DNA from: a virus
Virus record (IMG/VR): IMGVR_UViG_3300023106_000010
Location: 22,911-86,910 of that record
Length of the DNA: 64,000 bases
Direction: 5' to 3' (one strand)
Shown: one piece after another, positions 2,436 through 56,493 of the stretch
How the letters are laid out: each line of letters opens with the position of its first letter
Position numbering within the stretch: position 1 is the stretch's first letter
The notes under the pieces: model-generated
What the model was told of the DNA's origin: nothing
The model's database searches: none
What the model saw: only the letters and a program-made list of their open reading frames with translations
Position numbers and translations under genes: made by a program

Positions 2436-5400
2436 ATGGCTGCGGATATCACATCACTTGTAATTTCTGTTACATCACAAGGTATTAAGGAAGCATCGAC
2501 AGCTTTGTCAGGTCTTGGTACGTCTGCTGCAAACGCAGAGAAGCGTATTAACTCTCTTATCGAAGCTACAAAGCGTCTGAACACCATCAATGAAACTGCT
2601 GCAAAATCCTTTGTAAACGTAGCCGACAAGATGCGTGAGCAAGATAAACTGCTATCAAATATGGCAGCTAATTCTCGCACATCGGCTCGTGGGGTACAAG
2701 ACTTGGCAGCAGCTATGTTGCTCTTGTCTACATCCCTCAACTTGATGAATCAGAACATTGTGCGTACAACTGTCTCAACACGCGCTCACAATGAATCTAT
2801 GCGTGAGGCACACGCCCTCGCACGCGGCTTGTCAGGTTCCTTAGGTGCTCTGTGGCTGACGTATGGCAACCTTGCTGGTATGTCTGTTGGTGTGGCTATT
2901 GGTGCTGGTCTGAAGGGTATTATCAGTGTTGGTAAGGATGTCGAGAACACTTTGGAAGGTATTCGTGTTCGTGCAGGGGAATCCCGTGAATCGATGATTC
3001 AAGTTGCTGAAGCTGTAGAACGAATTGGTAAAGGTGTTTATGGCCCACAAGAAGTTGCTAAAGCGTTCGAGACTCTTGCTCTGGCAGGTTTGAAGGCTAA
3101 AGAATCAACTCTTGCAATTGGTGCTGCGCTGAACTTAGCTACAGCCGGTGGAACAAGTATTGAAAAGGCTGCTGAATCTCTCGTAACGATTGGCACAGCA
3201 GTAGGTGCAACAGCTAAGAGTTTTGACATGCTGGCAGATGGTATTACAGCAGCAGCTAATAGCTCTCTGGCATCTGTAGACAGTATTGCTGAATCAGTGA
3301 AACGTGCATCCGTAGTTAATAAATTGTATGGTGCAAGTTTTGACGATATCTTGACACAAACTGCTGCATTGGCACAATTAGGTATTAAGAATACAGCAGC
3401 AGGTACGGCTATTGTCAATTTCTACTCCAACTCGCTAGGTCAAACTGAAAAGTCGAAGAAAGCCCTTGACGCATTGGGAATGTCCTTCACGGATTTGAAC
3501 GGTAAAGCTAAACCTGTTGTAGATGCTTTTGAAGAGTTTACTGAGAAGCTGAATAAATTCGATTTGAAGTCACAGCAGACTATCATCAATGACATTTTTG
3601 GCGAACGAGCTTTGCGTGATGTCGAGGGTTTGCGTGACGCTGTTAATCGCTCCGCAGACGATACAGCAACGTATAGCAACAAGCTCCGTGAGATTCAAGG
3701 ACAGATTGCTGAAGCAGCGGGTACAGCGGCCCTGCAAAGTGTGCAGCTTGGTTTGACTACTTCTAAACAAATGGAATCTGTTGGTAACACTCTGAAAACT
3801 AGTTTGTCAGCAGCTTTCACAGAGGTCGCGCCGACGATTAAAGAGGTGTCCGATAGGCTGAAAGAAGTATTAGGCTCCCCTGAGTTTGTTCGTAGTATTG
3901 CAAACATCGCTACAGGTATTGCCAACCTGACCGCATTCTTGGTCGAGAATTACAAAGCAGTTGGCTATGTTGTTGAAGGTTTCTTGTTGTGGAAAGGTAT
4001 CACTCTCGGTGCTAATATGTTTGAAGCTATGGCACGAGGATTGACAGGCGTTGCTTCTGCAATGGGATTTGTGACGGTGGCAACTAATGGTGCTGCTGTA
4101 GGTACAGGCGCTCTTGCAACAGCTTTGAGATTCCTTCCGGGTATTGGTTTGGTGCTAACTGGCTTAACCGCCGCTTGGGCGCTGTACAACCTGCACTCAG
4201 GCAAAGCAAAGGATGTCGCTCAACAAACTGCTGACACGTATAATAAAGACTTTCTGAAAGCTTTGAAAGAAGAGGCTGAACGTCTTGAGAAGACTAACGA
4301 AGTGATTGCGTCTGGTACTTCTATCAAGGAGGCTGATGCTGTTGCTACTCGTGAACTGGCTATGGCTAAACTCCAAGAGACTAATGCTGACGCCGTCGCA
4401 AGTGCTCAAAAGACTCGTGACGAAGCCGCTGCTGCCCTCAAGGCTAAAAAGATTATCAATTACGCTTACGACGACAAGAGTAGCAAAGAAGCTAAAGCGT
4501 TAACTGCTGCACAGGATACACTCAACAAAGCAACAGAAACTTATAGCCAAACTATGAGTGATGCTGTGATGTTGACTAATCGTGTTGTGGAGGCAAGCAA
4601 GATAAAGAAAGCAGCTTATGCAGCAGAAGCGTTAGCAGCAGAGCAAGCAGCCAAAGCTGCTGCCGGTAATTTAAAATTTGGTGGAGCTAAACCAGACAAA
4701 GCTGCTGTCAACGACGCTTACGCAGCAGCCATCACATCGCTTAATAACAAAATCAAAGCTGCCAAGAAAGATATGCAGAACTTTGACGACAAGCTTAACG
4801 ATCAATTCAAAGCTGGCGAGATGGGCAAACTGCAAGTCATTCAGTCTTCTGCTGAAAATCAAATCGCAGAATATGAGAAAATTGGTAAGACTATTCAGGA
4901 TCAAATTGACAAGGCTTCTAAAGGTAAGAATAAAACTGCTGACGTAGAGAAATTCTCAGGTTTGCAGGAAGCTAATACAGAAGCCATCGAACAAGCCAAG
5001 CGTAAACAGGCTCAAGAGACTTCTGTGTATATTAGTCAACTTCGTCAAGATAGTAATAGAGAAGCTGTTAAGCAACTCGAAGAAGAAGGCAACTACGTAT
5101 CGGCAGCAGCCCTTCGCTGGAGTACCGAGTATTCTCCAGCAATTCAAGCTGTACAGAAAGACTACGAAGCTCTTGGCGATAAATTCCCTGAGATTGGTGA
5201 GCGTCTGAAACAATTGGAAGCTACGCAGGAATCCTTTATGGATGCTGCTCGTGTCAAAGAGTTGTCCAAAGAGTATAACGTGTTGGCTCTTGAAATTGCT
5301 AACACTCTGAAAGGTGTACAAACTGCTTCTGAAGATCAAGGCTTAGTTGCCATGTGGACAGCAGCACAAGATGCTACAGAGAAATACAAAGCTTCTTTGC

Positions 5401-8400
5401 CGGGATTAGCAGCCCAACTCGAAAAGCTGAAACGCTTTGCAATGGCTGATGACGCTTCCACAGGTGATAAGAAAGCCTACGAAGAGGCGTTGTCTCAGCA
5501 GACTTCTTTGGCTGAGAAATATAAGACAATGTGGACAGGTGTGGGTAAGTCTATCTCAGACTCCTTGGGAGACGCCTTCGGTAAATCTGGTAAAGCTGCT
5601 GGAGACATACTTCAGTCGATTGTCAAATACAATAATACCGATAACAAGTCAATCGAAGCTAAGAACAAACTCTACGGAAGCATGGCTGGTGCAGCTAAGA
5701 ACTTCTTCAAAGAAGGCTCTACAGGTTACAAGGTCATGGCTGCTGCTGAGAAAGTGTTCCGTGCTATCGAGTTGGCGAACATGATTAAGTCGTTGTTTGT
5801 GCACGAAGCTATAACTACCGCAAAAGTAACTGGAACTGCTATTGGTCAAGTGGCTGAAACTTCTGAAGTTATTGCCGGTGAAGCTGCTCGTAACACCGCC
5901 AAAGTTCCGGGAGTGTTTATGTCGTTCATGAGTGCACTTGGTCCATGGGGCGCTGCTGCGGCTGCTGTAGCTATTGCTGCTGTGCTGGGTGGCGCTTTCA
6001 GTGGAGGAGGCGGAGGTGGTATGTCTGCTGCTGAACGTCAAGCTAAACAAGGTACAGGTTCTGTACTGGGCGATGATTCAGCTAAAAGCGAAAGCATTGC
6101 TAAATCCTTGGAATTGATTCAACGTGACTCAGGCTTAGGCTTGGTACACTTCAAGTCAATGGATACTTCGCTGAAAGCTGTTGTTGCAGGACTTGGCAGC
6201 TTGGGGGCATCGATTGTTCAATTCGGTGGCGTCAATGATGTATCGAAACAAATCGCAGAAGGCCAATCTAGCGGATTCTTTAGTAAGCTTGCTACTTCTA
6301 TTTTCGGTGGCAAAACCACTGTGCAAGATAGCGGTATTTCGTTTGGTGCAGGTACTGTTGGTAGCATAGGTACCAGTGGTGTTAACGCACAATCCTACAA
6401 CGATATTAAGAAATCTGGTGGATGGTTTAGTAGTGACAAGTATCGCACAGAAACTAAAGATTTAGGGTCAGATATTAGTGGTAAGTTTTCTGACATTATT
6501 AGTAACATGGCTAAAACAATCACTGCTGCGGCTGACATGATTGGTATCGGTGGATCAGCTTTCAATGAACATCTGAAATCCTTTGTAGTCGATCTGGGTA
6601 AAATCTCCCTGAAAGATTTAAAAGGTGATGAAGTTACTGATGCACTGAATGCTATCTTCTCTAAACTTGGCGACGACATGGCAATGTTTGCTGTGGATGG
6701 CCTAAAGAACTTCCAGAAGATTGGTGAAGGTTATCTCGAAACTCTGTCACGAGTTGCTAATGAACTGATTCAGGTGCAAGATGTGTTTGCTGTACTTGGC
6801 AAGTCTATGACTTCTACAGGCTTGGCGGCGATTCAATCCTCGCAAAACTTTATTGATTTGTTCGGTAGTATTGATAAGCTGACAGAAGCTACAAGTTATT
6901 TTGTTGAGAACTTTTTGACAGATGCTGATAAGTTGAAACCTATCCAAGAATCACTGACCAAAGAGATGAATCGTTTAGGTTTGTCGTCAATTGACACTGT
7001 AGAAGAGTTCAAGAACCTCGTGCTTGCACAAGACTTGAATACTAAAGCTGGTCAAGAGATGTATGCAAACTTGATGAATGTCGCTCCTGCATTCTTGGCT
7101 GTTTCAGAGGCATCAACTAAAGCAGCAGAAGCAATAGCTGACCTCGCTAACAAGCGTCTGGACATGCTCTTGACAATTGCTGAATTGGAAGGTAATTCCG
7201 CCGCAGCTACATCCATAATTGCTCAGCAACGTTCTATTGAATTAGCTGCAATGGACGCCTCACTTCGCCCTCTGCAAGAACGTATCAATTTCTTGAACGA
7301 CGAAAAAGCTGCCACCGAAAAGTCTAACTCTTTACGAGACAAAACATTGTCGTTGAGTCTAACTCTGGCAAACTTGGAAGGTAATACTGCTGCGGCTACT
7401 GCTATTGTAGCACAACAGAGACTGATTGAGTTGGCAGCTATGGACGCTTCTCTGCGACCTATCCAAGAGCGCATTAACTTATTGACAGATGAGAAAGCAG
7501 CAGCTACAGCAGCGGCAGATGCCATTAAGAAGAATATTGATGCTTTGAAAACCACTGCTCAGAATGACTTTAATGTTCTGAGTAAAGCACTCACCAAAGC
7601 AAAGAATGATGCTCAGGTTGCGTACGATGCTCAAGCAGCTATTATTAATGCTCAAATTAGTTCTCTGGAAACTGTGCGCAATGGTATTACTGAGTTGAGT
7701 AATGCGTTGGATAGTACTCTGGACTCTATGCTGGACAATGCTGCTCTTGCAATGACTCGTGCTCAAGCTCAAGCGAAGTTGGATGAAGCTCTTAAAACTG
7801 CACGTACCACTGGTAAGCTCCCTTCCGCAGCAGACTTAAAAGATACGTTGGCAACTCTTGCGAAAGACCCAGCAGACTCGTTTAGCTCTTATGCAGATTA
7901 CATTAAGGATGTTGGTATTACAGCAGGTAAAGTTTCTAACTTAGCGGATATAGCTAAAGGTCAAGAGACAGCGGTGGATAAACAAATTGCTTTAGCTCAG
8001 AAGCAACTGGATGTCGCTAAAGATACTCTTGACAAAGAAATGGCTAAGTATGACATGTTGCTGGCTTTTGAACAGCAGCAGCTTGACGCGATGAATGGTA
8101 CGACAGTTGCTGTGCAAAATTTGACAGCGGCTTTGGTTAATTTCAATTCATCTGTACTGGCTGCTACAGCCGCTCAAGCTGGTCAGACAGGTTCTAATGG
8201 GAAGCCAATTACTTCTGTGAGAGCAACTGAAGATGACATTAAGAACCTGTACAAAAATGTGCTGGGTCGGGAAGGTGATGCTGGTGGGCTGGAGTATTAC
8301 AAGAAACTTGCTAGCGAGGGCTACACAGCATCCCAGTTGTCTCAGTTTTTTATGCAGTCTCCTGAGTATCTGGCTAAGCATCCTGACGGTAGTCATGCTG

Positions 8401-25199: not shown

Positions 25200-25276
25200 T
25201 GGAACCACCGGAGGAAATCGAATCCCCTTAAAGTCCGTGTAGAAAACGGATGCATAGTCCAGTCTGCCACGGTGGT
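25200..25276 (-). tRNA. tRNA-Arg(UCU)
   Basis: 77 bases read on the minus strand. Perfect 7-bp acceptor stem ACCACCG/CGGTGGT, D arm with GCA/TGC and GG in the loop, 5-bp anticodon stem TCCGT/ACGGA closing the loop TTTCTAC with anticodon TCT, T arm GGGGA/TCCTC with loop TTCGATT, discriminator T and encoded CCA. UCU reads AGA/AGG codons, rare in many Gram-negative hosts; AGA is used in this genome. Transcribed from the promoter at 25368-25396 together with SSB. Confidence 0.93.
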
Positions 25277-25367: not shown

Positions 25368-25396
25368 ATTATACAGATTCTTCTAACAATTGTCAA
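25368..25396 (-). promoter_or_regulatory. Consensus sigma70 promoter for tRNA-Arg and SSB
   Basis: TTGACA (25391-25396), 17 bases, TATAAT (25368-25373) on the minus strand. Both hexamers perfect. Spacer starts ATTGTTAGAAG, close to the shared spacer of other promoters here. A leader of about 85 bases precedes the tRNA. Confidence 0.92.
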
Positions 25397-25399
25397 GCT

Positions 25400-25477
25400 T
25401 TATTTATTCTCAGTAATCGCATACAGAACAATTGCAATTAGCCCAAGCCACATAAGTGTTTCGACAATGATGTTCAT
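25400..25477 (-). CDS. 25-residue membrane micropeptide
   Basis: Start ATG overlaps the stop of the preceding gene (TAATG) and GGAG lies upstream. The peptide is one hydrophobic helix (TLMWLGLIAIVLYAI) with a polar end. Its 3' end touches the -35 of the tRNA/SSB promoter. Short but with good translation signals. Confidence 0.6.
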   Translation of the reverse strand: MNIIVETLMWLGLIAIVLYAITENK

Positions 25478-27666: not shown

Positions 27667-27803
27667 TGTTCAGTTTCCTCTTGTTGTGTTCGCCTTGCGG
27701 CTGTGAGAAAGGCTTTTGGAATTCGCTGCCATTTATCGCCGTTGTGTACGTAATCACTCTCAGAGCTTTGCTTACAGCAAAATTGCTTTGTGTTTGTAGC
27801 CAT
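27663..27803 (-). CDS. Small basic protein, unknown
   Basis: 46 residues from the ATG at 27803, inside the 3' end of the upstream gene. Contains CC and many Lys, Gln, Thr; a YVHNGDKWQRIPKAF stretch. The ribosome binding site is weak (GAAGAA) and translation probably depends on coupling. Confidence 0.5.
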   Translation of the reverse strand: MATNTKQFCCKQSSESDYVHNGDKWQRIPKAFLTAARRTQQEETEQ

Positions 27804-27984
27804 TTTCTTCTGCGTCCTCTTCATCGTTTGCATAACCCTCACTTGGATCATCTCCGAAATAAATTATCGAAGGTGATTGTACTTTCTCTGGAGATTGTCC
27901 GTGGTCGCAGTAACCGTAGACGGACAGTTCCAGTTCTGCTTTGGATAGCAGCTTCAGTTGTGCTAGTAGTTCTTTTGCTTTCAT
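27772..27984 (-). CDS. Small acidic protein, unknown
   Basis: 70 residues. ATG overlaps the HNH stop (ATGA), AAGG upstream. N-terminal helix (AKELLAQLKLLSKAELEL) followed by VYGYCDHGQSPEKVQ and an acidic segment. The helix-YGYCDHGQ form occurs in other phage small proteins, role unknown. Confidence 0.65.
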   Translation of the reverse strand: MKAKELLAQLKLLSKAELELSVYGYCDHGQSPEKVQSPSIIYFGDDPSEGYANDEEDAEENGYKHKAILL

Positions 27985-28751
27985 GTTCCGTGCCTTTCAG
28001 TGTATCCCGCTCCAAGAGCGTTAAGTTCTTCAATCATTTTCTTACGGTGTTCACAAGCCATTTCAAACGCTATTGCATCACCTAATTTAGCAACAGGGAA
28101 GCATTTACATGATTCTGTATTATCGATGTTTCTCCAAACCGCAACATAATAATAGTAAGGATCACCTTTTCTATCTGTATTGGTTTGATACTTTACACCA
28201 GACACTCCTGTTGAATTGTTAATATTCTTCTTTGCGTTTCTGGCATTAATTACTCTTGGTACAAGTCTAAGATTCTCAATTTTATTGTTTGTTCCATCTC
28301 CATCGATATGGTCAATAAACAAATCAGAATCAATTTCTCCATGAAATAAAACCCACACCACACGGTGAGCACTGCTCTTTAAACCATCAATATTAATCTT
28401 CCAATATCCTCCGTGACAACTTCCAACCACATCTCCGGGATAACATTGCACCTTTAAATTATCCTTACCAGAGTATCGAAACACTTTCCATCTCAGACCA
28501 CTAGGACTTGTTTCGTCATACTCTACAATTTCTGACAAATGATTATACTTAACATTCTCCCTACGGATATTCACTTCTGGGTTAACGAACTGACCCTTTC
28601 TTAGTTTTCCACCCGTAGTCTGTACTTCTGTTGAAAAGTTATCAAAAACTATAGTGATATCGGAATACAGATTGTATTTTGTTACAGTACACCAACCACA
28701 ATTATTTGACAGAAATCTATCACCTACTTTAATATTTGGTTTCATGCTCAT
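27981..28751 (-). CDS. HNH homing endonuclease with AP2-like domain
   Basis: 256 residues. A unique N-terminal 70 residues (KVGDRFLSNNCGWCTVTKY) precede the same layout as the gene at 13420: LRWKVFR...GDVVGS, AHRVVWVLFHGEID, IDHIDGDGTNNKIENLR (HNH core), then TGVSGVKYQTN...YYYVAVWR of the AP2-like domain and a C-terminal LGAGYTE.HG. Follows the small gene at 28748 in an operon behind a promoter with a LexA-type site. Confidence 0.87.
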   Translation of the reverse strand: MSMKPNIKVGDRFLSNNCGWCTVTKYNLYSDITIVFDNFSTEVQTTGGKLRKGQFVNPEVNIRRENVKYNHLSEIVEYDETSPSGLRWKVFRYSGKDNLKVQCYPGDVVGSCHGGYWKINIDGLKSSAHRVVWVLFHGEIDSDLFIDHIDGDGTNNKIENLRLVPRVINARNAKKNINNSTGVSGVKYQTNTDRKGDPYYYYVAVWRNIDNTESCKCFPVAKLGDAIAFEMACEHRKKMIEELNALGAGYTERHGT

Positions 28752-28936
28752 TCAAATGACTCCAATTTCTTCAGAAGTCGAATCTTGGCTGCACGTTTAC
28801 GAGCTTCAATAATCTTTTCTACAATTTCTGTGTGACCTTTGTTTTTATGATAGGTCAACATTTGACTTACAGACTGACTTGTGACAGTTAACACATGTTC
28901 AACAACTTCTTCTACACTTGCTTCTGAATATTTCAT
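28748..28936 (-). CDS. Small helical protein of a homing cassette, copy A
   Basis: 62 residues from ATG 28936. Pattern VEHVL......V....YHKNKGHTEIVEKIIEARKRAAKIRLLKKLE resembles the product at 51598 (YHKSKGNFYVVERIDKARMVLKQQRVMLQLE). Both precede a homing-nuclease gene by an ATGA overlap and follow a LexA-box promoter. Basic C-terminal helix could bind nucleic acid. Confidence 0.7.
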   Translation of the reverse strand: MKYSEASVEEVVEHVLTVTSQSVSQMLTYHKNKGHTEIVEKIIEARKRAAKIRLLKKLESFE

Positions 28937-28961: not shown

Positions 28962-28990
28962 ATTATACCATGAACTATATGATTTGTCAA
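28962..28990 (-). promoter_or_regulatory. Consensus sigma70 promoter (cassette A)
   Basis: TTGACA (28985-28990), 17 bases, TATAAT (28962-28967), both perfect. A LexA-type site lies one base upstream of the -35. Confidence 0.92.
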
Positions 28991-28991
28991 G

Positions 28992-29007
28992 CTGTTTATT
29001 TATACAG
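28992..29007 (-). promoter_or_regulatory. LexA-type operator (SOS box) 1
   Basis: CTGTATAAATAAACAG on the minus strand, preceded by TA. It fits CTGT-N8-ACAG with an AT-rich centre, the LexA operator of gamma/betaproteobacteria. It overlaps the DNA polymerase stop codon (29000-29002) and ends one base from the -35 of the next promoter. Confidence 0.75.
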
Positions 29008-31072
29008 TAGTCAGAACTAACTTCTCAGCTTCGGCTACGTAGTAGTCATAATCAATGTCACCAACAAAGTCTTCAATGTTATTACAAGTCTTTACCATGT
29101 ATTCAATGTCGATGCCAAAGCGGCGTTCCTCACCACCTTCTTCAGTTGGAGGCATGATCTTCACAAGCTTTCCACCAGTCTTGCATGGATAGTAGCGGCA
29201 AATGTTCTGTTGAAGTGTCTCATTTTCTTCCGCATCAATAATCACCAAACGACTACTGCGCGGAACCTTCGTTCGCAACATGAAGTCAAACTTCTCTTTG
29301 TGAGCCATAATAAATTCACGCACATCCGTTCCAAACAGCATCTTCGCTTCTGCTGCCATTGGAATGACCAGTGAAGAGTGGTTCTTGTGCCAACCTAAAT
29401 CTTTGTACTCGTAAGCACCTTTGTTCTTCAGCTTACCATTTGTGTAGTGCGCAATATAATTATTCACGTCTCGGATATACATTGCTTTGTACTCAGCATA
29501 CTCCAAATCAAGCTTAACCTGTTTCTGCCAGTCTGCACAAATCTGATTGTATTGCTCACGAGAAGTACGTTTCATCTTCACAGTGATGCCATCGGTGTTG
29601 ACTTGAATAATCTGCAAACCTTCAATGTCCATCAATTTCTCGGCTAACAGGCACAATGAAAGCTGACCATTGATCGTGATCTTCATAGTGTATGCAGAGT
29701 CGTAGAACACACTAAACTGATTGTTGCTATCGCCGTACACACCGTTCAGAGCTAGCTTCAGCATTGCATTCTCAGCAGATGCCTTTGGATAGCTTTTACG
29801 CTGTTCATAAACGTCCTTGTAAATCTCACAGAACTTCTTGCTCAAGTGTTCTGGATAGACATTGTTGCTGATAGCAATGTTTGGATACATTGAGGAAACG
29901 TCAGCATCAATTACTTCGTGCTCATCATCCTCTCGTACAATGGTTGTGGACAAGCTACCATGAATCCCACCTACACCGAAGTCAAAGCGGAAACCATTAA
30001 TAACTACGTTCAGAGTTTCGGCAATCTTCCACTTGAAATAATATGAGTGCTGGAATTCGCCTTTCTTCTTTGCTTTCAGTTGAACCTTGTCAACCCAGCC
30101 ACATGGATGTTCTCGTTTGAATTCATCATACTGAGCACGAGTCGGTTCACCTGTCTTACACTTCTCTTTCTTGACAATCATCTCAGCGTATAGTGCAACG
30201 TCACCAAGTTTGTGTTCTTCGATATCTGTGAATACACCTTTGGTTTCTTTGATAACCTGCTTAGCCAACCATTGATGAACTGCGATAAACTCAGGGCGTT
30301 TGAAGTCGTAATAATCAAACAAACAATCTCGAATCTTGATATACGGACGAATAGTTTGAATCAATTTCTTCTGACGACCAACCATCTTGTGTGTTTTGAT
30401 ACCAGCTTCTTGTAATCGCATCGTGAAGAAGTCTTTGCCGATCTTCGTATCATTGTGATTCATGAAGTCTCGGTTATACTTCTCCGTCAGTTGAGTTCGG
30501 AAGTCCACCATCGGCTTGCTATGATGATAGAAGTTGTTTGTACAATAAACGTCATGTCCATTGTACTTCACAAGCACATCAATCTGTTCGTGTGACAACT
30601 CCATACCAACAGGAAAAGGCAAATCCTCAATGTTAGGTTCACGCATATTAAACTCAAGCATCTTTAGACTTGTCATCTTCGCTTTGTTGTCGAAGTGATG
30701 AATCTTGAACAGATCAACCTGCTTCACATATTCTTCTTCAGCAGGAACAGTGTGTGCAAACCCGCCCTCTTTGACAGACGCAATTTGTTCCATTGCCCAA
30801 CCATAAATCATTCGTGCGAGTTCTTCACCGTCTTTAGGAAGACGATTGCGATTCTCAATGATCTTGTGTAATACAGGGTAATCAAATCCTTTATTGTTGA
30901 ATCCTACCATTCGATCACCCTGCTTCTTGAGATAATCTACACAAGCAAGTACCCGATGGATTTCGTTCTTACGACCACTTACTTCAAAGGTGTTAGGAAA
31001 CTTTCCATCTGTACGAACAATACAGAAAGTAAAGCAGTTAGGGTAAGTCTCGCAGTCAAACGTCCAATCCAT
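29000..31072 (-). CDS. Family B DNA polymerase
   Basis: 690 residues. Proofreading domain: ExoI D6-C-E8 (TFDCETYP), ExoII GFNNKGFD with D64, ExoIII Y170-NGH-D174. Polymerase domain: motif A D391-VSSMYPN, motif B K439-LALNGVYG, motif C VNTDGITV with D494. In motif C the first acidic residue of the usual DTD is Asn492, a variant seen in some phage polymerases. Shorter than most family B enzymes. Its start overlaps the HNH-like gene by 17 bases, so both share the promoter at 31673. Replicative polymerase of the phage. Confidence 0.95.
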   Translation of the reverse strand: MDWTFDCETYPNCFTFCIVRTDGKFPNTFEVSGRKNEIHRVLACVDYLKKQGDRMVGFNNKGFDYPVLHKIIENRNRLPKDGEELARMIYGWAMEQIASVKEGGFAHTVPAEEEYVKQVDLFKIHHFDNKAKMTSLKMLEFNMREPNIEDLPFPVGMELSHEQIDVLVKYNGHDVYCTNNFYHHSKPMVDFRTQLTEKYNRDFMNHNDTKIGKDFFTMRLQEAGIKTHKMVGRQKKLIQTIRPYIKIRDCLFDYYDFKRPEFIAVHQWLAKQVIKETKGVFTDIEEHKLGDVALYAEMIVKKEKCKTGEPTRAQYDEFKREHPCGWVDKVQLKAKKKGEFQHSYYFKWKIAETLNVVINGFRFDFGVGGIHGSLSTTIVREDDEHEVIDADVSSMYPNIAISNNVYPEHLSKKFCEIYKDVYEQRKSYPKASAENAMLKLALNGVYGDSNNQFSVFYDSAYTMKITINGQLSLCLLAEKLMDIEGLQIIQVNTDGITVKMKRTSREQYNQICADWQKQVKLDLEYAEYKAMYIRDVNNYIAHYTNGKLKNKGAYEYKDLGWHKNHSSLVIPMAAEAKMLFGTDVREFIMAHKEKFDFMLRTKVPRSSRLVIIDAEENETLQQNICRYYPCKTGGKLVKIMPPTEEGGEERRFGIDIEYMVKTCNNIEDFVGDIDYDYYVAEAEKLVLTTV

Positions 31073-31643
31073 GTTTCAGACCTTCCACAACACGGATACA
31101 AACATCAAGGATTTCTTCATCATTCATTTCTCCGCGTAATAAATTCACTTGCCAAATAACAACTCGTGTATTCTCTTTAGTATATCCTTTTGAAGAGTCT
31201 CGTCTGTCGATACTTGGTGCAAAAGGATTCTTTTCATATTTTGGATGCTGTGACAAGTCAAATGGTAGATGTGTTATTTCACAGAACCCGGATTTGAGTT
31301 TATCTTCGATCCAATTAACAGTAAGATCAAATTCTTCGTATTTTACTGCTCTGCGTGTAGCACTTTTGTAAAGTGTTTTTGCTCTACCACTGATACTTTT
31401 GTAGAAATCAGCGCTTCTCTTTTGGGAAGCTTCTTTGACTTCAGGGTTTTCTTGTCGTTTCTTCTCTCGTTCTTGTCGTTTGTGTTTGTATTCAGGATTA
31501 TCAGAATATCTTTTTCTATTATACTCTAACACACACGCCTTACAAACCGAATTTCTTCGATGATTTCCATCTTCAGATTTTTCGACAACGTAGAAATCTT
31601 CTTCATTTTTCTCTGTATTACACTTGCTGCAAACTTTACTCAT
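31056..31643 (-). CDS. HNH-like nuclease with N-terminal zinc finger
   Basis: 195 residues. N-terminal KVCSKCNTEK...VCKACVLEY is a CxxC...CxxC zinc finger; a highly basic helix follows (HKRQEREKKRQEN). The C-terminal part has CEITHLPFD and SIDRRDSSKGYTKENTRVV, the pattern of phage HNH-like endonucleases (SxDRxxSxxGYxxxN). Overlaps the polymerase gene and is first behind an SOS-type promoter; probably a mobile nuclease sitting next to pol. Confidence 0.8.
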   Translation of the reverse strand: MSKVCSKCNTEKNEEDFYVVEKSEDGNHRRNSVCKACVLEYNRKRYSDNPEYKHKRQEREKKRQENPEVKEASQKRSADFYKSISGRAKTLYKSATRRAVKYEEFDLTVNWIEDKLKSGFCEITHLPFDLSQHPKYEKNPFAPSIDRRDSSKGYTKENTRVVIWQVNLLRGEMNDEEILDVCIRVVEGLKHGLDV

Positions 31644-31702: not shown

Positions 31703-31718
31703 CTGTACGGATATACAG
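31703..31718 (-). promoter_or_regulatory. LexA-type operator (SOS box) 2
   Basis: CTGTATATCCGTACAG with flanking TA and TC; the arms ACTGTA/TACAGT are a perfect 6-bp dyad. It lies just after the primase-helicase stop and two bases from the -35. Confidence 0.8.
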
Positions 31719-37885: not shown

Positions 37886-38077
37886 CTAATCCTCATAATA
37901 TGGAAAACTTACTTCACAGCATTTGGAACAAACTGTCATGGTATTGTTATGCAAACCATAAGTTATAGATTCGTAAGGCTCGTGACAATACCCGCACAGA
38001 AGCAATCCACGAGGGCGTGTCTTGTTGCAAAGATAATCCTCACCACTGTATTCGTCAAAGATTCTGTTTACGTTCAT
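37886..38077 (-). CDS. Zinc-ribbon small protein, copy 2
   Basis: 63 residues from the ATG at 38077, which overlaps the thyX stop. Shares YSGEDYLCNK with the product at 36940, followed by two knuckles CGYCHEPYES and CSKCCEV. Paralogue. Confidence 0.75.
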   Translation of the reverse strand: MNVNRIFDEYSGEDYLCNKTRPRGLLLCGYCHEPYESITYGLHNNTMTVCSKCCEVSFPYYED

Positions 38078-38736
38078 TTCCAAGTCTCATCAGCAATAGG
38101 AAAAGCCTGATTCACAGCTTCTGCGATTAGCCGAGCAAGCACGACGTGTTCTTCTTGAGTAACACCTTTTTCAAGACGTACCTGCAAATAATGGCACCAA
38201 GAACGAATTGTACCATTCACATATGCACGAGACATTGTCAGCCCTTCGGGTAGAATCACTCGACAAACTTCCTTGGCAATCCCTGCTTCCAGAGCAAACT
38301 TGTAGCGGTCTTTTACAATATCCAAGATTTCGTGTTGAATATCTTCCCACACTCGTTTCAATACTTCGTCATCCGTGTCAATACTATTCTGACGATTTTT
38401 GCTATCTTGCATACGCAGATCACGAATACAGAAAGCTTTCTCCAGAGAAGTCACATCAGCATAACGCTGTGAGAATTCTTGGAAACTAAAGCTGCGATGG
38501 CGCAGTAACTGTCGCATAATATCTCGTGGGGCCGAAACCTCCACCACGGCATTAGCCATCTCTAAAGGACTCCAGTGACTGTGCTTCACAAGGTACGACA
38601 GCAGCTTGTCAGCCGTATCCATGTTCATTTGATTGGATGGATTGCTCACTCGTGCACAATACGCGATGAGTTCTTTAGCATCTTCAATACCTTCTACTAC
38701 AGGTTTAGTTACAGCGATTAGTTTTGCGTTCAGCAT
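38074..38736 (-). CDS. thyX: Flavin-dependent thymidylate synthase
   Basis: 220 residues. Makes dTMP from dUMP using FAD and methylenetetrahydrofolate. The ThyX signature RHR-x7-S is present as R79-H80-R81...S89 (RHRSFSFQEFSQRY), and the C-terminal part has RAYVNGTIRSWCHYL and EVCRVILPEGL typical of the family. Normal length. Works with the phage RNR to raise dTTP; encoded some 20 kb from nrdAB in another minus-strand operon. Confidence 0.95.
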   Translation of the reverse strand: MLNAKLIAVTKPVVEGIEDAKELIAYCARVSNPSNQMNMDTADKLLSYLVKHSHWSPLEMANAVVEVSAPRDIMRQLLRHRSFSFQEFSQRYADVTSLEKAFCIRDLRMQDSKNRQNSIDTDDEVLKRVWEDIQHEILDIVKDRYKFALEAGIAKEVCRVILPEGLTMSRAYVNGTIRSWCHYLQVRLEKGVTQEEHVVLARLIAEAVNQAFPIADETWK

Positions 38737-38739
38737 TTA

Positions 38740-38919
38740 TCAATCTTTCAAATCAGAATATTCACAGAGGTCCAACTTTACAGCCAACTCTTTCAAGCCG
38801 CTATTAGCACCATCGATATAATCAGAGTTAGCTCCCGCCAAGAACATTACTTCTCGGTTCCTGTCAAGCATATCCAGAATTGTTTCCAAGAGGAATGCCT
38901 TATACATTGTTGTACTCAT
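38740..38919 (-). CDS. Small protein upstream of thyX, unknown
   Basis: 59 residues, ATG after GAGGAAG and overlapping the stop of the gene before. Helical, mixed charge (YKAFLLETILDMLDRNREVMF). No family recognised. Confidence 0.7.
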   Translation of the reverse strand: MSTTMYKAFLLETILDMLDRNREVMFLAGANSDYIDGANSGLKELAVKLDLCEYSDLKD

Positions 38920-45851: not shown

Positions 45852-45880
45852 TTGACAGTTCTCAGAACAACTCCTATCAT
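45852..45880 (+). promoter_or_regulatory. Sigma70 promoter, first plus-strand early operon
   Basis: TTGACA (45852-45857), 17 bases, TATCAT (45875-45880). Spacer GTTCTCAGAAC is an 11-bp palindrome. Confidence 0.88.
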
Positions 45881-49533: not shown

Positions 49534-49562
49534 TTGACAGTTGTCAGAACTGAGAGCATCAT
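49534..49562 (+). promoter_or_regulatory. Promoter with conserved spacer
   Basis: TTGACA (49534-49539), 17 bases, CATCAT (49557-49562). Spacer GTTGTCAGAAC. Confidence 0.75.
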
Positions 49563-50533: not shown

Positions 50534-50661
50534 GCAACGACAAAGCACTCTCCCTCTACTCTGGTCGCAATGTGCCAGAGTCTTTGGCAGCAATTAACGC
50601 CCAGATCAATCTTGCACAGATGCCTCTTGTATTATATTTTCAACAAAAGACACTACGCTAG
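50530..50661 (+). pseudogene. Truncated small gene, cut by homing cassette
   Basis: 43 codons from ATG 50530 (overlapping the previous stop) to TAG. The first 30 residues (NDKALSLYSGRNVPESLAAIN) match the product at 51909 (NKALELFQGRDVPQHLAESN). After about 50618 the reading enters the 3' end of the minus-strand GIY-YIG gene and the similarity ends, so the original end was probably lost when the cassette inserted. Confidence 0.55.
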
Positions 50662-51601
50662 GATAATTCTCAATTAATGTGGCTTCTGTGATGAAGCCCT
50701 TAACTTCTTGAGGGGTTACGATAAAATTAGCTTTTATTTTTCGTTCGATCTTACTTGCAAGCCAAGGGCTTATATCATTAAAAGTTTTATAGTTTTGAAT
50801 TACAAACTGCCTCTTTTTAAGATTCATTTTGTGGTGTTTCAGTCTTGTAGTCAAGTCTCGTGTTATTCCATAACCAGTAAAACTGCCTGTATCAGAGGTT
50901 ACTTCCAGAACATAAATAATAAAATTAGCGTCCTTAGGGATTGTTTTGGTTTTCCTACAACTGCAAGGCAGATAACCTTGGAGCATATTTTGTCTACAAC
51001 CTTCAAATATCTCTTGGGGATTACTTGTAGAGCATCTTGGGCAAATGTACCTCCAAGAATCTTTACCTTTGACCTCTTTTTCACACTTCCAAAACAATGT
51101 ATCTTCATGGAACAATCCTGTTGCCATTAGCTTATTAGCTACAAATTCATCATTATCTTTCTTTCTCGGTACAACTTGTAAGCTGCACATTTGGCAACCA
51201 CCTCGCTTATCCATGAATGTTTTTATTGTCGATGTCCATTCGTGGTTATCCCTTCTACATCTTAGGAAGATCTTGTCGTCATCAATTCTGGTAATTTCTA
51301 CATTCATTTTTGCCGCTTTTCTGTGACACAAAACAATTTTCTGTTCTTTTGACCATTTACCCATTTTAGTGCAGCCACACGGCAATTTACCTTTCATGAG
51401 AGATGATTTCTCTGCTAGAAATTTGCCATCCCCAAACAGTTCAGAATCATTCTTACAAGTATGGCAAATAATAGTGTACACCTTAGCCCAAGCACGTTTC
51501 TCACCAAACCAACCTAAAACCTCAACTTGGCCTTCTTTACCAAAACGTTTTCCAACAAATTCATCTAGTTCTGCAAAATATGGTTGTACTTTACCGTTCA
51601 T
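50606..51601 (-). CDS. GIY-YIG homing endonuclease with zinc knuckles
   Basis: 331 residues. Several CxxC-type knuckles (CHTCKND...LPCGC, CQMC, CPRCSTS...LPCSC) precede a C-terminal GIY-YIG-like nuclease (FIIYVLEVTS...GYGITRDLTTRL, with R and later E in KIERKIK). Minus-strand insert in a plus-strand gene region. Its ATG overlaps the stop of the small gene at 51598. Cassette B behind a LexA-box promoter. Confidence 0.82.
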   Translation of the reverse strand: MNGKVQPYFAELDEFVGKRFGKEGQVEVLGWFGEKRAWAKVYTIICHTCKNDSELFGDGKFLAEKSSLMKGKLPCGCTKMGKWSKEQKIVLCHRKAAKMNVEITRIDDDKIFLRCRRDNHEWTSTIKTFMDKRGGCQMCSLQVVPRKKDNDEFVANKLMATGLFHEDTLFWKCEKEVKGKDSWRYICPRCSTSNPQEIFEGCRQNMLQGYLPCSCRKTKTIPKDANFIIYVLEVTSDTGSFTGYGITRDLTTRLKHHKMNLKKRQFVIQNYKTFNDISPWLASKIERKIKANFIVTPQEVKGFITEATLIENYPSVVSFVENIIQEASVQD

Positions 51602-51813
51602 TCTCCAAATCCTTTACAATCATTTTTAAGCTGCTCTAGTTGGAGCATTACCCGTTGTTGTTTCAACACCATACGAGCTTTATCAATTCGTTCAACAACA
51701 TAAAAATTCCCCTTGCTTTTGTGGTAGCGCTTTGCTACACTTACTGAAGCTGAGGAAGACGAAGCGATGTGTTGTAGAAGTTCAACATCACTAGAAGTTA
51801 CGTAATTAAACAT
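51598..51813 (-). CDS. Small helical protein of a homing cassette, copy B
   Basis: 71 residues from the ATG at 51813 (AAGGA upstream). Shares YHK(S/N)KG...VE(R/K)I..AR....(R)..(L)..LE with the product at 28748. Followed by a nuclease gene in an ATGA overlap, exactly as in cassette A although the nuclease family differs. Confidence 0.7.
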   Translation of the reverse strand: MFNYVTSSDVELLQHIASSSSASVSVAKRYHKSKGNFYVVERIDKARMVLKQQRVMLQLEQLKNDCKGFGE

Positions 51814-51845: not shown

Positions 51846-51873
51846 ATTGTAACACGGAAATGTTACCTGTCAA
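51846..51873 (-). promoter_or_regulatory. Sigma70-type promoter (cassette B)
   Basis: TTGACA (51868-51873), 16 bases, TACAAT (51846-51851), minus strand; LexA-type site two bases upstream of the -35. Confidence 0.85.
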
Positions 51874-51875
51874 TA

Positions 51876-51891
51876 CTGTGTATTTATACAG
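51876..51891 (-). promoter_or_regulatory. LexA-type operator (SOS box) 3
   Basis: CTGTATAAATACACAG on the minus strand with flanking A and T giving ACTGT-N8-ACAGT. Almost the same as box 1 (14 of 16 positions or more). Confidence 0.78.
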
Positions 51892-52794: not shown

Positions 52795-52997
52795 CAAAAT
52801 TCCAAGAAGGTGACAAAGTAATGTGCACAGACACTCGTAATGATGCAAATCATTTGCAGTGGAACAAAGTTTACAAAGTGTCATGGTGCAGTGAACATTA
52901 CGTTCGGCTCAGCATGAGTATGATGCGTGTCGGAGGTGGCTTGCAAGCGACGATGTTTTCTGTGGATAGATTTGAGAAGGTTCTTGACAATTCTTAG
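52791..52997 (+). CDS. Small SH3-like protein, unknown
   Basis: 68 residues. FQEGDKVMCTD...NKVYKVSW and a GG turn suggest a small beta barrel of the kind found in many phage early genes. The -35 of the following promoter lies in its 3' end. Confidence 0.68.
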   Translation: MTKFQEGDKVMCTDTRNDANHLQWNKVYKVSWCSEHYVRLSMSMMRVGGGLQATMFSVDRFEKVLDNS

Positions 52998-53011
52998 AAC
53001 TACTGTAGAAT
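52984..53011 (+). promoter_or_regulatory. Promoter with conserved spacer
   Basis: TTGACA (52984-52989), 16 bases, TAGAAT (53006-53011). Spacer ATTCTTAGAAC. Confidence 0.82.
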
Positions 53012-55680: not shown

Positions 55681-56493
55681 GTGGCAGTAATTAATAAAAA
55701 TGTATTTTATGTATACGTACACAGGAGAGGTGATAACAACGAGGTGTTTTATGTTGGAAAAGGTAAGGGCGGGAGGGCGACAGCTACAGCAAGGAGGAAT
55801 GCATGGTGGACGAATATCTACAAAAAATATGGAAGAGTGGTAGAGTACGTAGAGAAGGGCATGTCAGAAGAAGATGCATATGATTTGGAGTATGAATTAG
55901 TTAAATTTTACAGAGAAACTGGACACACCCTATGTAATCTAACAAATGGTGGGGATGGTACAAGATCAATTCCAGAAGCCGCTAAAAAGATAATGACAGA
56001 AAGAATTTTATCCCCTGAAGTTGTCGAAAAACGATTAAGAAATATGAGAAGGCCCGTTCTTTGCTCAAATGGAATGATTTTTGATTCTGCAAAGAGTGCT
56101 GCTGCGTGGCTGGGTAAGGGGTGTGGTGGAAGTATTAGTGTGGTGTGCAAGAGAAAAGGTAAATGTAGCTGGGGTGGTTTTGTTTGGAGATATGTTGACG
56201 ATTCTGAAGATTTAAAGATTATTTTGTTGAAAAATTTAGATGCTTTTGTAGAGTTCGGTTGTGATGTACATCTATCACAATTTGCCCCAAGTAAAGTTTA
56301 TTGTTCAAACGGAATCGTATTCAAATCGGCTGACCAAGCAGCAAACTGGCTAAAAACTAATGGATTCCCTAATGCGAATCGTTCAACTGTCAGACGTTGT
56401 TGTAATAATGCTACATGGTACTTTGATAAAATAGGGTTTTCATGGCAAGAAATATTTGTCGGACCATTTGTGACAAATCAAAATATTTCTTGA
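55681..56493 (+). CDS. GIY-YIG homing endonuclease with NUMOD-type repeats
   Basis: 270 residues from the GTG at 55681, which has GGAGG five bases upstream. N-terminal GIY-YIG domain (FYVYVHRR...EVFYVGKGKGGR, R in ARRN, E in DLEYELV), then two repeats of a DNA-binding module: (V)LCSNGMIFDSAKSAAAWLG...GGFVWRY and VYCSNGIVFKSADQAANWLK...GFSW. Inserted after a terminator and without a promoter of its own, in the plus direction. Confidence 0.88.
   Translation: MAVINKNVFYVYVHRRGDNNEVFYVGKGKGGRATATARRNAWWTNIYKKYGRVVEYVEKGMSEEDAYDLEYELVKFYRETGHTLCNLTNGGDGTRSIPEAAKKIMTERILSPEVVEKRLRNMRRPVLCSNGMIFDSAKSAAAWLGKGCGGSISVVCKRKGKCSWGGFVWRYVDDSEDLKIILLKNLDAFVEFGCDVHLSQFAPSKVYCSNGIVFKSADQAANWLKTNGFPNANRSTVRRCCNNATWYFDKIGFSWQEIFVGPFVTNQNIS

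What the first reader, a model, noticed from the sequence alone, without database searches (positions are those of the whole stretch)
28962..29007. Phage promoters preceded by LexA-type operators: box 1 before a homing-nuclease cassette
Seen: CTGTATAAATAAACAG ends one base before a perfect TTGACA-17-TATAAT promoter. Two other promoters (31673, 51846) have the same layout, with boxes CTGTATATCCGTACAG and CTGTATAAATACACAG. No other promoter in the window has such a site. Known: CTGT-N8-ACAG is the LexA operator of gamma/betaproteobacteria. Inferred: the host SOS repressor holds these operons off until DNA damage, including damage by the phage's own nucleases.
Basis: partly seen in the sequence, partly recalled or inferred. 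Interest (0 to 1): 0.75.

Follow-up and report, generated by a model that had tools for sequence, protein, structure and literature searches.

The report
LexA-type boxes on phage nuclease promoters
A metagenomic phage carries three mobile DNA-cutting genes, each behind a strong promoter with a copy of the site that the bacterial DNA-damage repressor LexA binds, which suggests these cutters stay off until the host's DNA-damage alarm goes off; binding and control have not been tested.

Summary
CTGT-N8-ACAG boxes at 28992-29007, 31703-31718 and 51876-51891 lie 1, 2 and 2 nt upstream of TTGACA in strong sigma70-type promoters on the minus strand. They are among the four most LexA-like sequences in the whole 86.9-kb contig. 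Three of those four abut promoters, which is about 3e-9 by chance. Box 1 is identical over 18 nt to the box upstream of the SOS gene hokE in E. coli. Each box is the first element of a nuclease cassette (HNH-AP2; Endo VII-like; CapR/GIY-YIG). Relative L017 lacks the first two cassettes and their boxes. The contig encodes no LexA, S24 or HTH_3 repressor, and its nearest relatives infect beta/gammaproteobacteria, whose LexA reads CTGT-N8-ACAG. Best reading: host LexA represses the cassettes until SOS induction. Cassette 2 also places the DNA polymerase gene behind such a promoter. Against this, the layout is absent from 22 related phages (3 here, 0 there); three homologous cassettes elsewhere have promoters but no box; the box sits upstream of -35 rather than over -10/start; and the host is unknown. 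This is a new variant of known LexA control of phage promoters; no report of LexA-controlled homing nucleases was found.

The parts
28992..29007 (-). Box 1, CTGTATAAATAAACAG, LexA-type operator; overlaps the DNA polymerase stop codon (29000-29002)
   Evidence: 18-nt identity with the hokE box of E. coli
28962..28990 (-). Promoter 1, TTGACA-17-TATAAT, perfect
28748..28936 (-). Cassette 1 leader ORF (62 aa), uncharacterised three-helix protein; homologue in cassette 3 and in three relatives
   Evidence: model pLDDT 93; no fold match
27981..28751 (-). Cassette 1 HNH endonuclease with AP2-like C-terminus (256 aa)
   Evidence: PF13392 1.9e-16, phrog_99 2.6e-38
31703..31718 (-). Box 2, CTGTATATCCGTACAG, LexA-type operator, directly after the helicase stop codon; absent with its cassette from L017
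31673..31700 (-). Promoter 2, TTGACA-16-TATAAT
31056..31643 (-). Cassette 2 Endo VII-like nuclease (195 aa); its end overlaps the polymerase start
   Evidence: phrog_3322 3e-27, phrog_1035 1.1e-25; overlap
29000..31072 (-). Family B DNA polymerase, now downstream of promoter 2
   Evidence: phrog_1252 1.7e-179; in L017 it follows the helicase 6 nt later
51876..51891 (-). Box 3, CTGTATAAATACACAG, LexA-type operator
51846..51873 (-). Promoter 3, TTGACA-16-TACAAT
51598..51813 (-). Cassette 3 leader ORF (71 aa), homologue of the cassette 1 leader (35% identity)
50606..51601 (-). Cassette 3 CapR/DUF4379 protein (331 aa) with a GIY-YIG-like C-terminus
   Evidence: PF21817 7.1e-18; GIY-YIG match weak, 0.05, below cut-off; phrog_681 endonuclease 1.7e-31

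Best explanation
The boxes are operators for the host's LexA repressor, carried at the 5' edge of three mobile nuclease cassettes. On infection, host LexA sits just upstream of -35 and keeps RNA polymerase off an otherwise near-maximal sigma70 promoter, so the nucleases are not made early. When phage replication, host-DNA breakdown or other damage gives single-stranded DNA, activated RecA makes LexA cleave itself and the cassettes switch on when recombination templates are abundant and homing pays. Cassette 2 also places the DNA polymerase gene behind such a promoter, in addition to any read-through from the helicase. Shown: box sequence, position, statistical non-randomness, association with three unrelated nuclease families, absence of cassettes 1 and 2 with their boxes from L017, no repressor of the LexA/S24/HTH_3 kind in the contig. 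Inferred: LexA binding, repression, SOS induction, timing and benefit.
For: Boxes are the top LexA-like sites of the contig and abut promoters, about 3e-9. 18-nt identity with the hokE box of E. coli, hokE being an SOS-regulon gene (PMC2814082). A prophage umuDC-type operon has CTGTATAAACAAACAG upstream, one base from box 1. CTGT-N8-ACAG is the LexA motif of most beta/gammaproteobacteria (PMC3323433, PMC6595937). Nearest polymerase relatives infect Limnohabitans and Curvibacter; nearest helicase relatives infect Pseudaeromonas and Pseudomonas. No S24, LexA_DNA_bind or HTH_3 protein in the contig. Box and hexamers recur while spacers differ. T4 endonuclease-specific promoters are middle or late, never early (PMC2988022), so delayed expression is the known pattern.
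Against: No box-promoter layout in 22 related records. Homologous cassettes in L011/L117, L118 and L119 have their own promoter but no box. The usual site of working LexA boxes is over -10 and start (PMC2814082); here the box is centred near -45, where activators also bind. Two further nuclease cassettes in this contig have strong promoters without a box. The host is unknown. A reversed-pattern control scan of IMG/VR gave as many raw hits as the box pattern (11 and 11), though fewer after merging relatives (4 against 10).
Confidence: 0.62

Rival explanations
1. A phage-encoded regulator of an unrecognised kind, for example the 62-71 aa leader protein, binds the boxes, so the cassettes regulate themselves rather than through host SOS.
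For: Leader ORF directly behind boxes 1 and 3, predicted with confidence as three helices. T4 I-TevI represses its own promoter (PMC2988022).
Against: Three relatives have the leader ORF without the box. Cassette 2 has the box without a leader ORF. No fold match. One operator serves three unrelated nucleases. The motif, flanks included, is the LexA consensus.
Confidence: 0.15
2. The boxes are sites for an activator, or UP-element-like sequences, that raise transcription; LexA or a LexA-like protein could act positively from upstream of -35.
For: Box centre near -45 is an activator position; the centre is A/T-rich. The LexA homologue gp6 of phage GIL01 activates from a site overlapping -35 (PMC6182141). 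An A/T-rich TAAATAAA-GC-TTGAC without a box occurs in the homologous L011 promoter.
Against: A perfect or near-perfect -35/-10 needs no activator. A UP element does not explain the CTGT/ACAG dyad.
Confidence: 0.1
3. The sites are LexA-like but have no effect in infection, for example inherited from another element, or met in a host that reads another motif.
For: No conservation in relatives.
Against: Three well-preserved copies at nearly one geometry, with diverged spacers, argue for selection or very recent acquisition.
Confidence: 0.13

Closest known systems
LexA operator (SOS box) of gamma/betaproteobacteria
   Same: CTGT-N8-ACAG with A/T-rich centre and TA-type flanks; box 1 identical over 18 nt to the hokE box
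   Different: Lies upstream of -35 of a near-perfect phage promoter rather than over -10/start; downstream genes are nucleases of a phage
Phage GIL01, whose lytic promoters are held by host LexA
   Same: Host LexA as repressor of phage promoters
   Different: GIL01 is a temperate Bacillus phage, with tandem boxes and co-repressor gp7; here single boxes and only cassette promoters, no sign of a lysogeny switch
T4 I-TevI and other regulated homing endonucleases
   Same: Nuclease expression delayed by an operator at its own promoter
   Different: I-TevI represses itself through a site like its homing site; here three unrelated nucleases share one non-self operator
F-CphI, Endo VII-motif homing endonuclease family
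   Same: Cassette 2 protein is Endo VII-like and free-standing
   Different: Not shown to be a homing enzyme; no link of F-CphI to LexA known to me

Membership tests
LexA operator of beta/gammaproteobacteria | CTGT-N8-ACAG core | tested here: met
   exact at three promoters
LexA operator of beta/gammaproteobacteria | A/T-rich centre and TA flanks like known operators | tested here: met
   top scores of the contig, above shuffles; 18-nt match to the hokE box
LexA operator of beta/gammaproteobacteria | placed to block RNA polymerase at the promoter | tested here: inconclusive
   1-2 nt upstream of -35; usual position is over -10/start (PMC2814082)
LexA operator of beta/gammaproteobacteria | kept upstream of orthologous genes in relatives | tested here: not met
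   0 of 22 related records; 0 of 3 homologous cassettes
LexA operator of beta/gammaproteobacteria | bound by host LexA and relieved by DNA damage | not testable with these tools
   needs gel shift and expression data; host unknown
Free-standing homing endonuclease cassette | nuclease of a homing-endonuclease-type family | tested here: met
   HNH and Endo VII-like matches significant; CapR/phrog_681 endonuclease match significant, its GIY-YIG match only 0.05
Free-standing homing endonuclease cassette | present in one phage, absent from the same place in a relative | tested here: met
   cassettes 1 and 2 absent from L017; cassette 3 not tested
Free-standing homing endonuclease cassette | cuts the cassette-free allele and promotes its own transfer | not testable with these tools
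GIL01-type LexA phage switch | tandem boxes controlling the main lytic promoters | tested here: not met
   single boxes at cassette promoters only; a gp7 homologue was not searched for
I-TevI-type autorepression | operator resembles the endonuclease's own homing site | tested here: not met
   one shared operator for three unrelated nucleases; box absent at the cassette-free places in L017

The most novel reading that the evidence does not exclude
A phage in which host LexA times a set of unrelated homing nucleases, and through cassette 2 part of the transcription of its DNA polymerase, to the SOS response: mobile cassettes that acquired SOS control so as to cut when recombination is active.
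Probability: 0.35. Interest if true: 0.72.

Novelty: new variant of a known kind. Interest (0 to 1): 0.52.

Why it matters
How free-standing homing nucleases are timed in phage infection is still an open area (PMC2988022 names it so). If LexA times them, selfish nucleases would listen to the cell's damage signal, possibly in a self-reinforcing way since nuclease cuts can induce SOS, and the same signal would reach the phage polymerase gene. The prediction is directly testable with three short promoters and a lexA mutant.

Tried and rejected
Whole-collection enrichment: box plus perfect promoter gave 11 raw hits in IMG/VR, and a reversed-pattern control also 11, so the raw count shows no general enrichment; after merging related hits it is 10 against 4. 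Nearly the same pattern in 84,980 prokaryote genomes gave 16 hits, mostly Clostridia and other non-proteobacterial MAGs, near what chance gives. A looser pattern (CTGTATAN5ACAG, 0-3 nt, TTGACA) gave 89 stretches, with a 2-nt gap commonest (22 of 45 distinct), but -10 matches only slightly above background, so most are not proven promoters. Boxes as the nucleases' target sites: rejected for box 2, which lies in inserted DNA that L017 lacks. Phage LexA/CI: no match to S24, LexA_DNA_bind or HTH_3. Relatives of nucleases 2 and 3 in IMG/VR: none found; HNH relatives have no box at a promoter. The TTGACA downstream of the umuDC-type boxes lies only about 12 nt before the start codon and is not counted as a -35; those loci serve only as examples of the box.

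Full report
What is there. The window is bases 22911-86910 of an 86,910-base phage contig, 42% G+C in the window. Three exact CTGT-N8-ACAG boxes lie in the window, each on the minus strand just upstream of a strong sigma70-type promoter: CTGTATAAATAAACAG-C-TTGACA-N17-TATAAT, CTGTATATCCGTACAG-TC-TTGACA-N16-TATAAT and CTGTATAAATACACAG-TA-TTGACA-N16-TACAAT. A fourth exact box, at contig 5191, has no adjacent promoter.

Is it more than chance. The bare motif is not enriched. Scored with centre and flanks, the four exact sites are the four best of the contig, 19.7-20.5 against 17.5-19.4 for the best of each of ten second-order shuffles. With 26 promoters at no more than one mismatch, the chance that at least three of four sites fall 0-2 nt upstream of one is about 3e-9, and shuffled upstream regions yield 0.0016 boxes per genome. 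The test was chosen after seeing the pattern, but the margin is large.

What lies downstream. Box 1: a 62-aa leader ORF and an HNH nuclease with an AP2-like end. Box 2: an Endo VII-like nuclease whose end overlaps the start of the family B DNA polymerase. Box 3: a 71-aa leader ORF related to the first (35%) and a CapR/DUF4379 protein with an endonuclease-family match and a weak GIY-YIG match. The nucleases belong to three unrelated families. Two other nuclease-type cassettes in this contig, a CapR one (contig 6045-7397) and a homing-endonuclease match (window 55681-56493), have strong promoters without a box.

Are they insertions. In relative L017 (84% amino-acid identity of the polymerase) the polymerase follows the helicase after 6 nt, where this phage has box 2, promoter 2 and nuclease 2. 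After the polymerase, L017 has no HNH cassette and continues to the orthologue of window 27772-27984. So boxes 1 and 2 came with their cassettes and mark their 5' edges. By comparison, other relatives carry nuclease genes at the same polymerase and helicase borders.

Who could bind. Box 1 plus the next two bases (CTGTATAAATAAACAGCT) is identical to the site upstream of hokE in E. coli K-12; hokE is listed as an SOS-regulon gene (PMC2814082). In a prophage contig, CTGTATAAACAAACAG stands in front of an S24/umuC-type operon. CTGT-N8-ACAG is the LexA motif of most beta- and gammaproteobacteria (PMC3323433, PMC6595937). The nearest polymerase relatives infect Limnohabitans and Curvibacter, the nearest helicase relatives Pseudaeromonas and Pseudomonas. 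The contig encodes no S24, LexA_DNA_bind or HTH_3 protein, and its Pfam scan shows no repressor among the listed families. The host is not known.

What speaks against it. The layout box-(0-6)-TTGAC occurs three times here and not once in 22 related records. Three homologous leader-ORF cassettes in relatives have promoters but no box; the L011 promoter is visibly homologous to promoter 1 and lacks the dyad. Working LexA boxes usually overlap -10 and start (PMC2814082); here the box ends 1-2 nt before -35. A LexA footprint reaches a few bases beyond its 16-mer (own knowledge), so occlusion of -35 is plausible, but an activator role is not excluded.

Mechanism. Most likely host LexA represses these promoters until activated RecA appears during infection, so that nucleases are made late, as T4's endonuclease-specific promoters are middle or late but never early (PMC2988022). 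Binding, repression and timing are inferred.

Other phages. Box sequences of this type occur elsewhere in IMG/VR. One 44.6-kb contig has five CTGT-N8-ACAG sites, four of them within about 1 kb in or beside a divergent intergenic region, one identical to box 2, without an S24 or LexA_DNA_bind match. L059 has a box and perfect promoter before an ORF that resembles Endo VII-type nucleases by eye, next to a family A DNA polymerase; that ORF had no Pfam match. These are leads, not proof.

Novelty. Searches of the open-access library found LexA-controlled phage promoters (GIL01) and autoregulated homing nucleases (I-TevI), but no paper on LexA-controlled homing nucleases. The library lacks most subscription journals.

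Noticed in passing
window 28748-28936 and 51598-51813; L117, L118, L119: A small uncharacterised leader-ORF family (62-71 aa, three predicted helices) in front of nuclease cassettes of three different families; no Pfam or PHROG match at 0.001 and no fold match.
   Followed up: partly
contig 5191-5206 (L005), recombinase 5501-6175: A fourth exact LexA-like box without adjacent promoter, about 300 nt upstream of a serine recombinase gene.
   Followed up: partly
window 45852-45868, 49534-49550, 52984-53000: A different recurrent element: TTGACA followed by GTTCTCAGAAC-like dyads in the -35/-10 spacer, possibly another operator.
   Followed up: no
window 45826 (-); contig 11065 and 21564 (+): Promoters with 16-nt spacers holding a CACAG/CTGTG-like dyad (for example TTGACACACAGCAAAACTGTGTTATAAT).
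   Followed up: no
L258 (IMGVR_UViG_3300037247_000112, contig 37951-38886): Another phage contig with four LexA-like boxes in about 1 kb, one identical to box 2, and no S24 or LexA_DNA_bind match.
   Followed up: partly
window 25411-25426 and 25368-25396: A 15/16 LexA-like match 14 nt upstream of the TTGACA of a perfect promoter that reads towards a tRNA-Arg gene (25200-25276).
   Followed up: no
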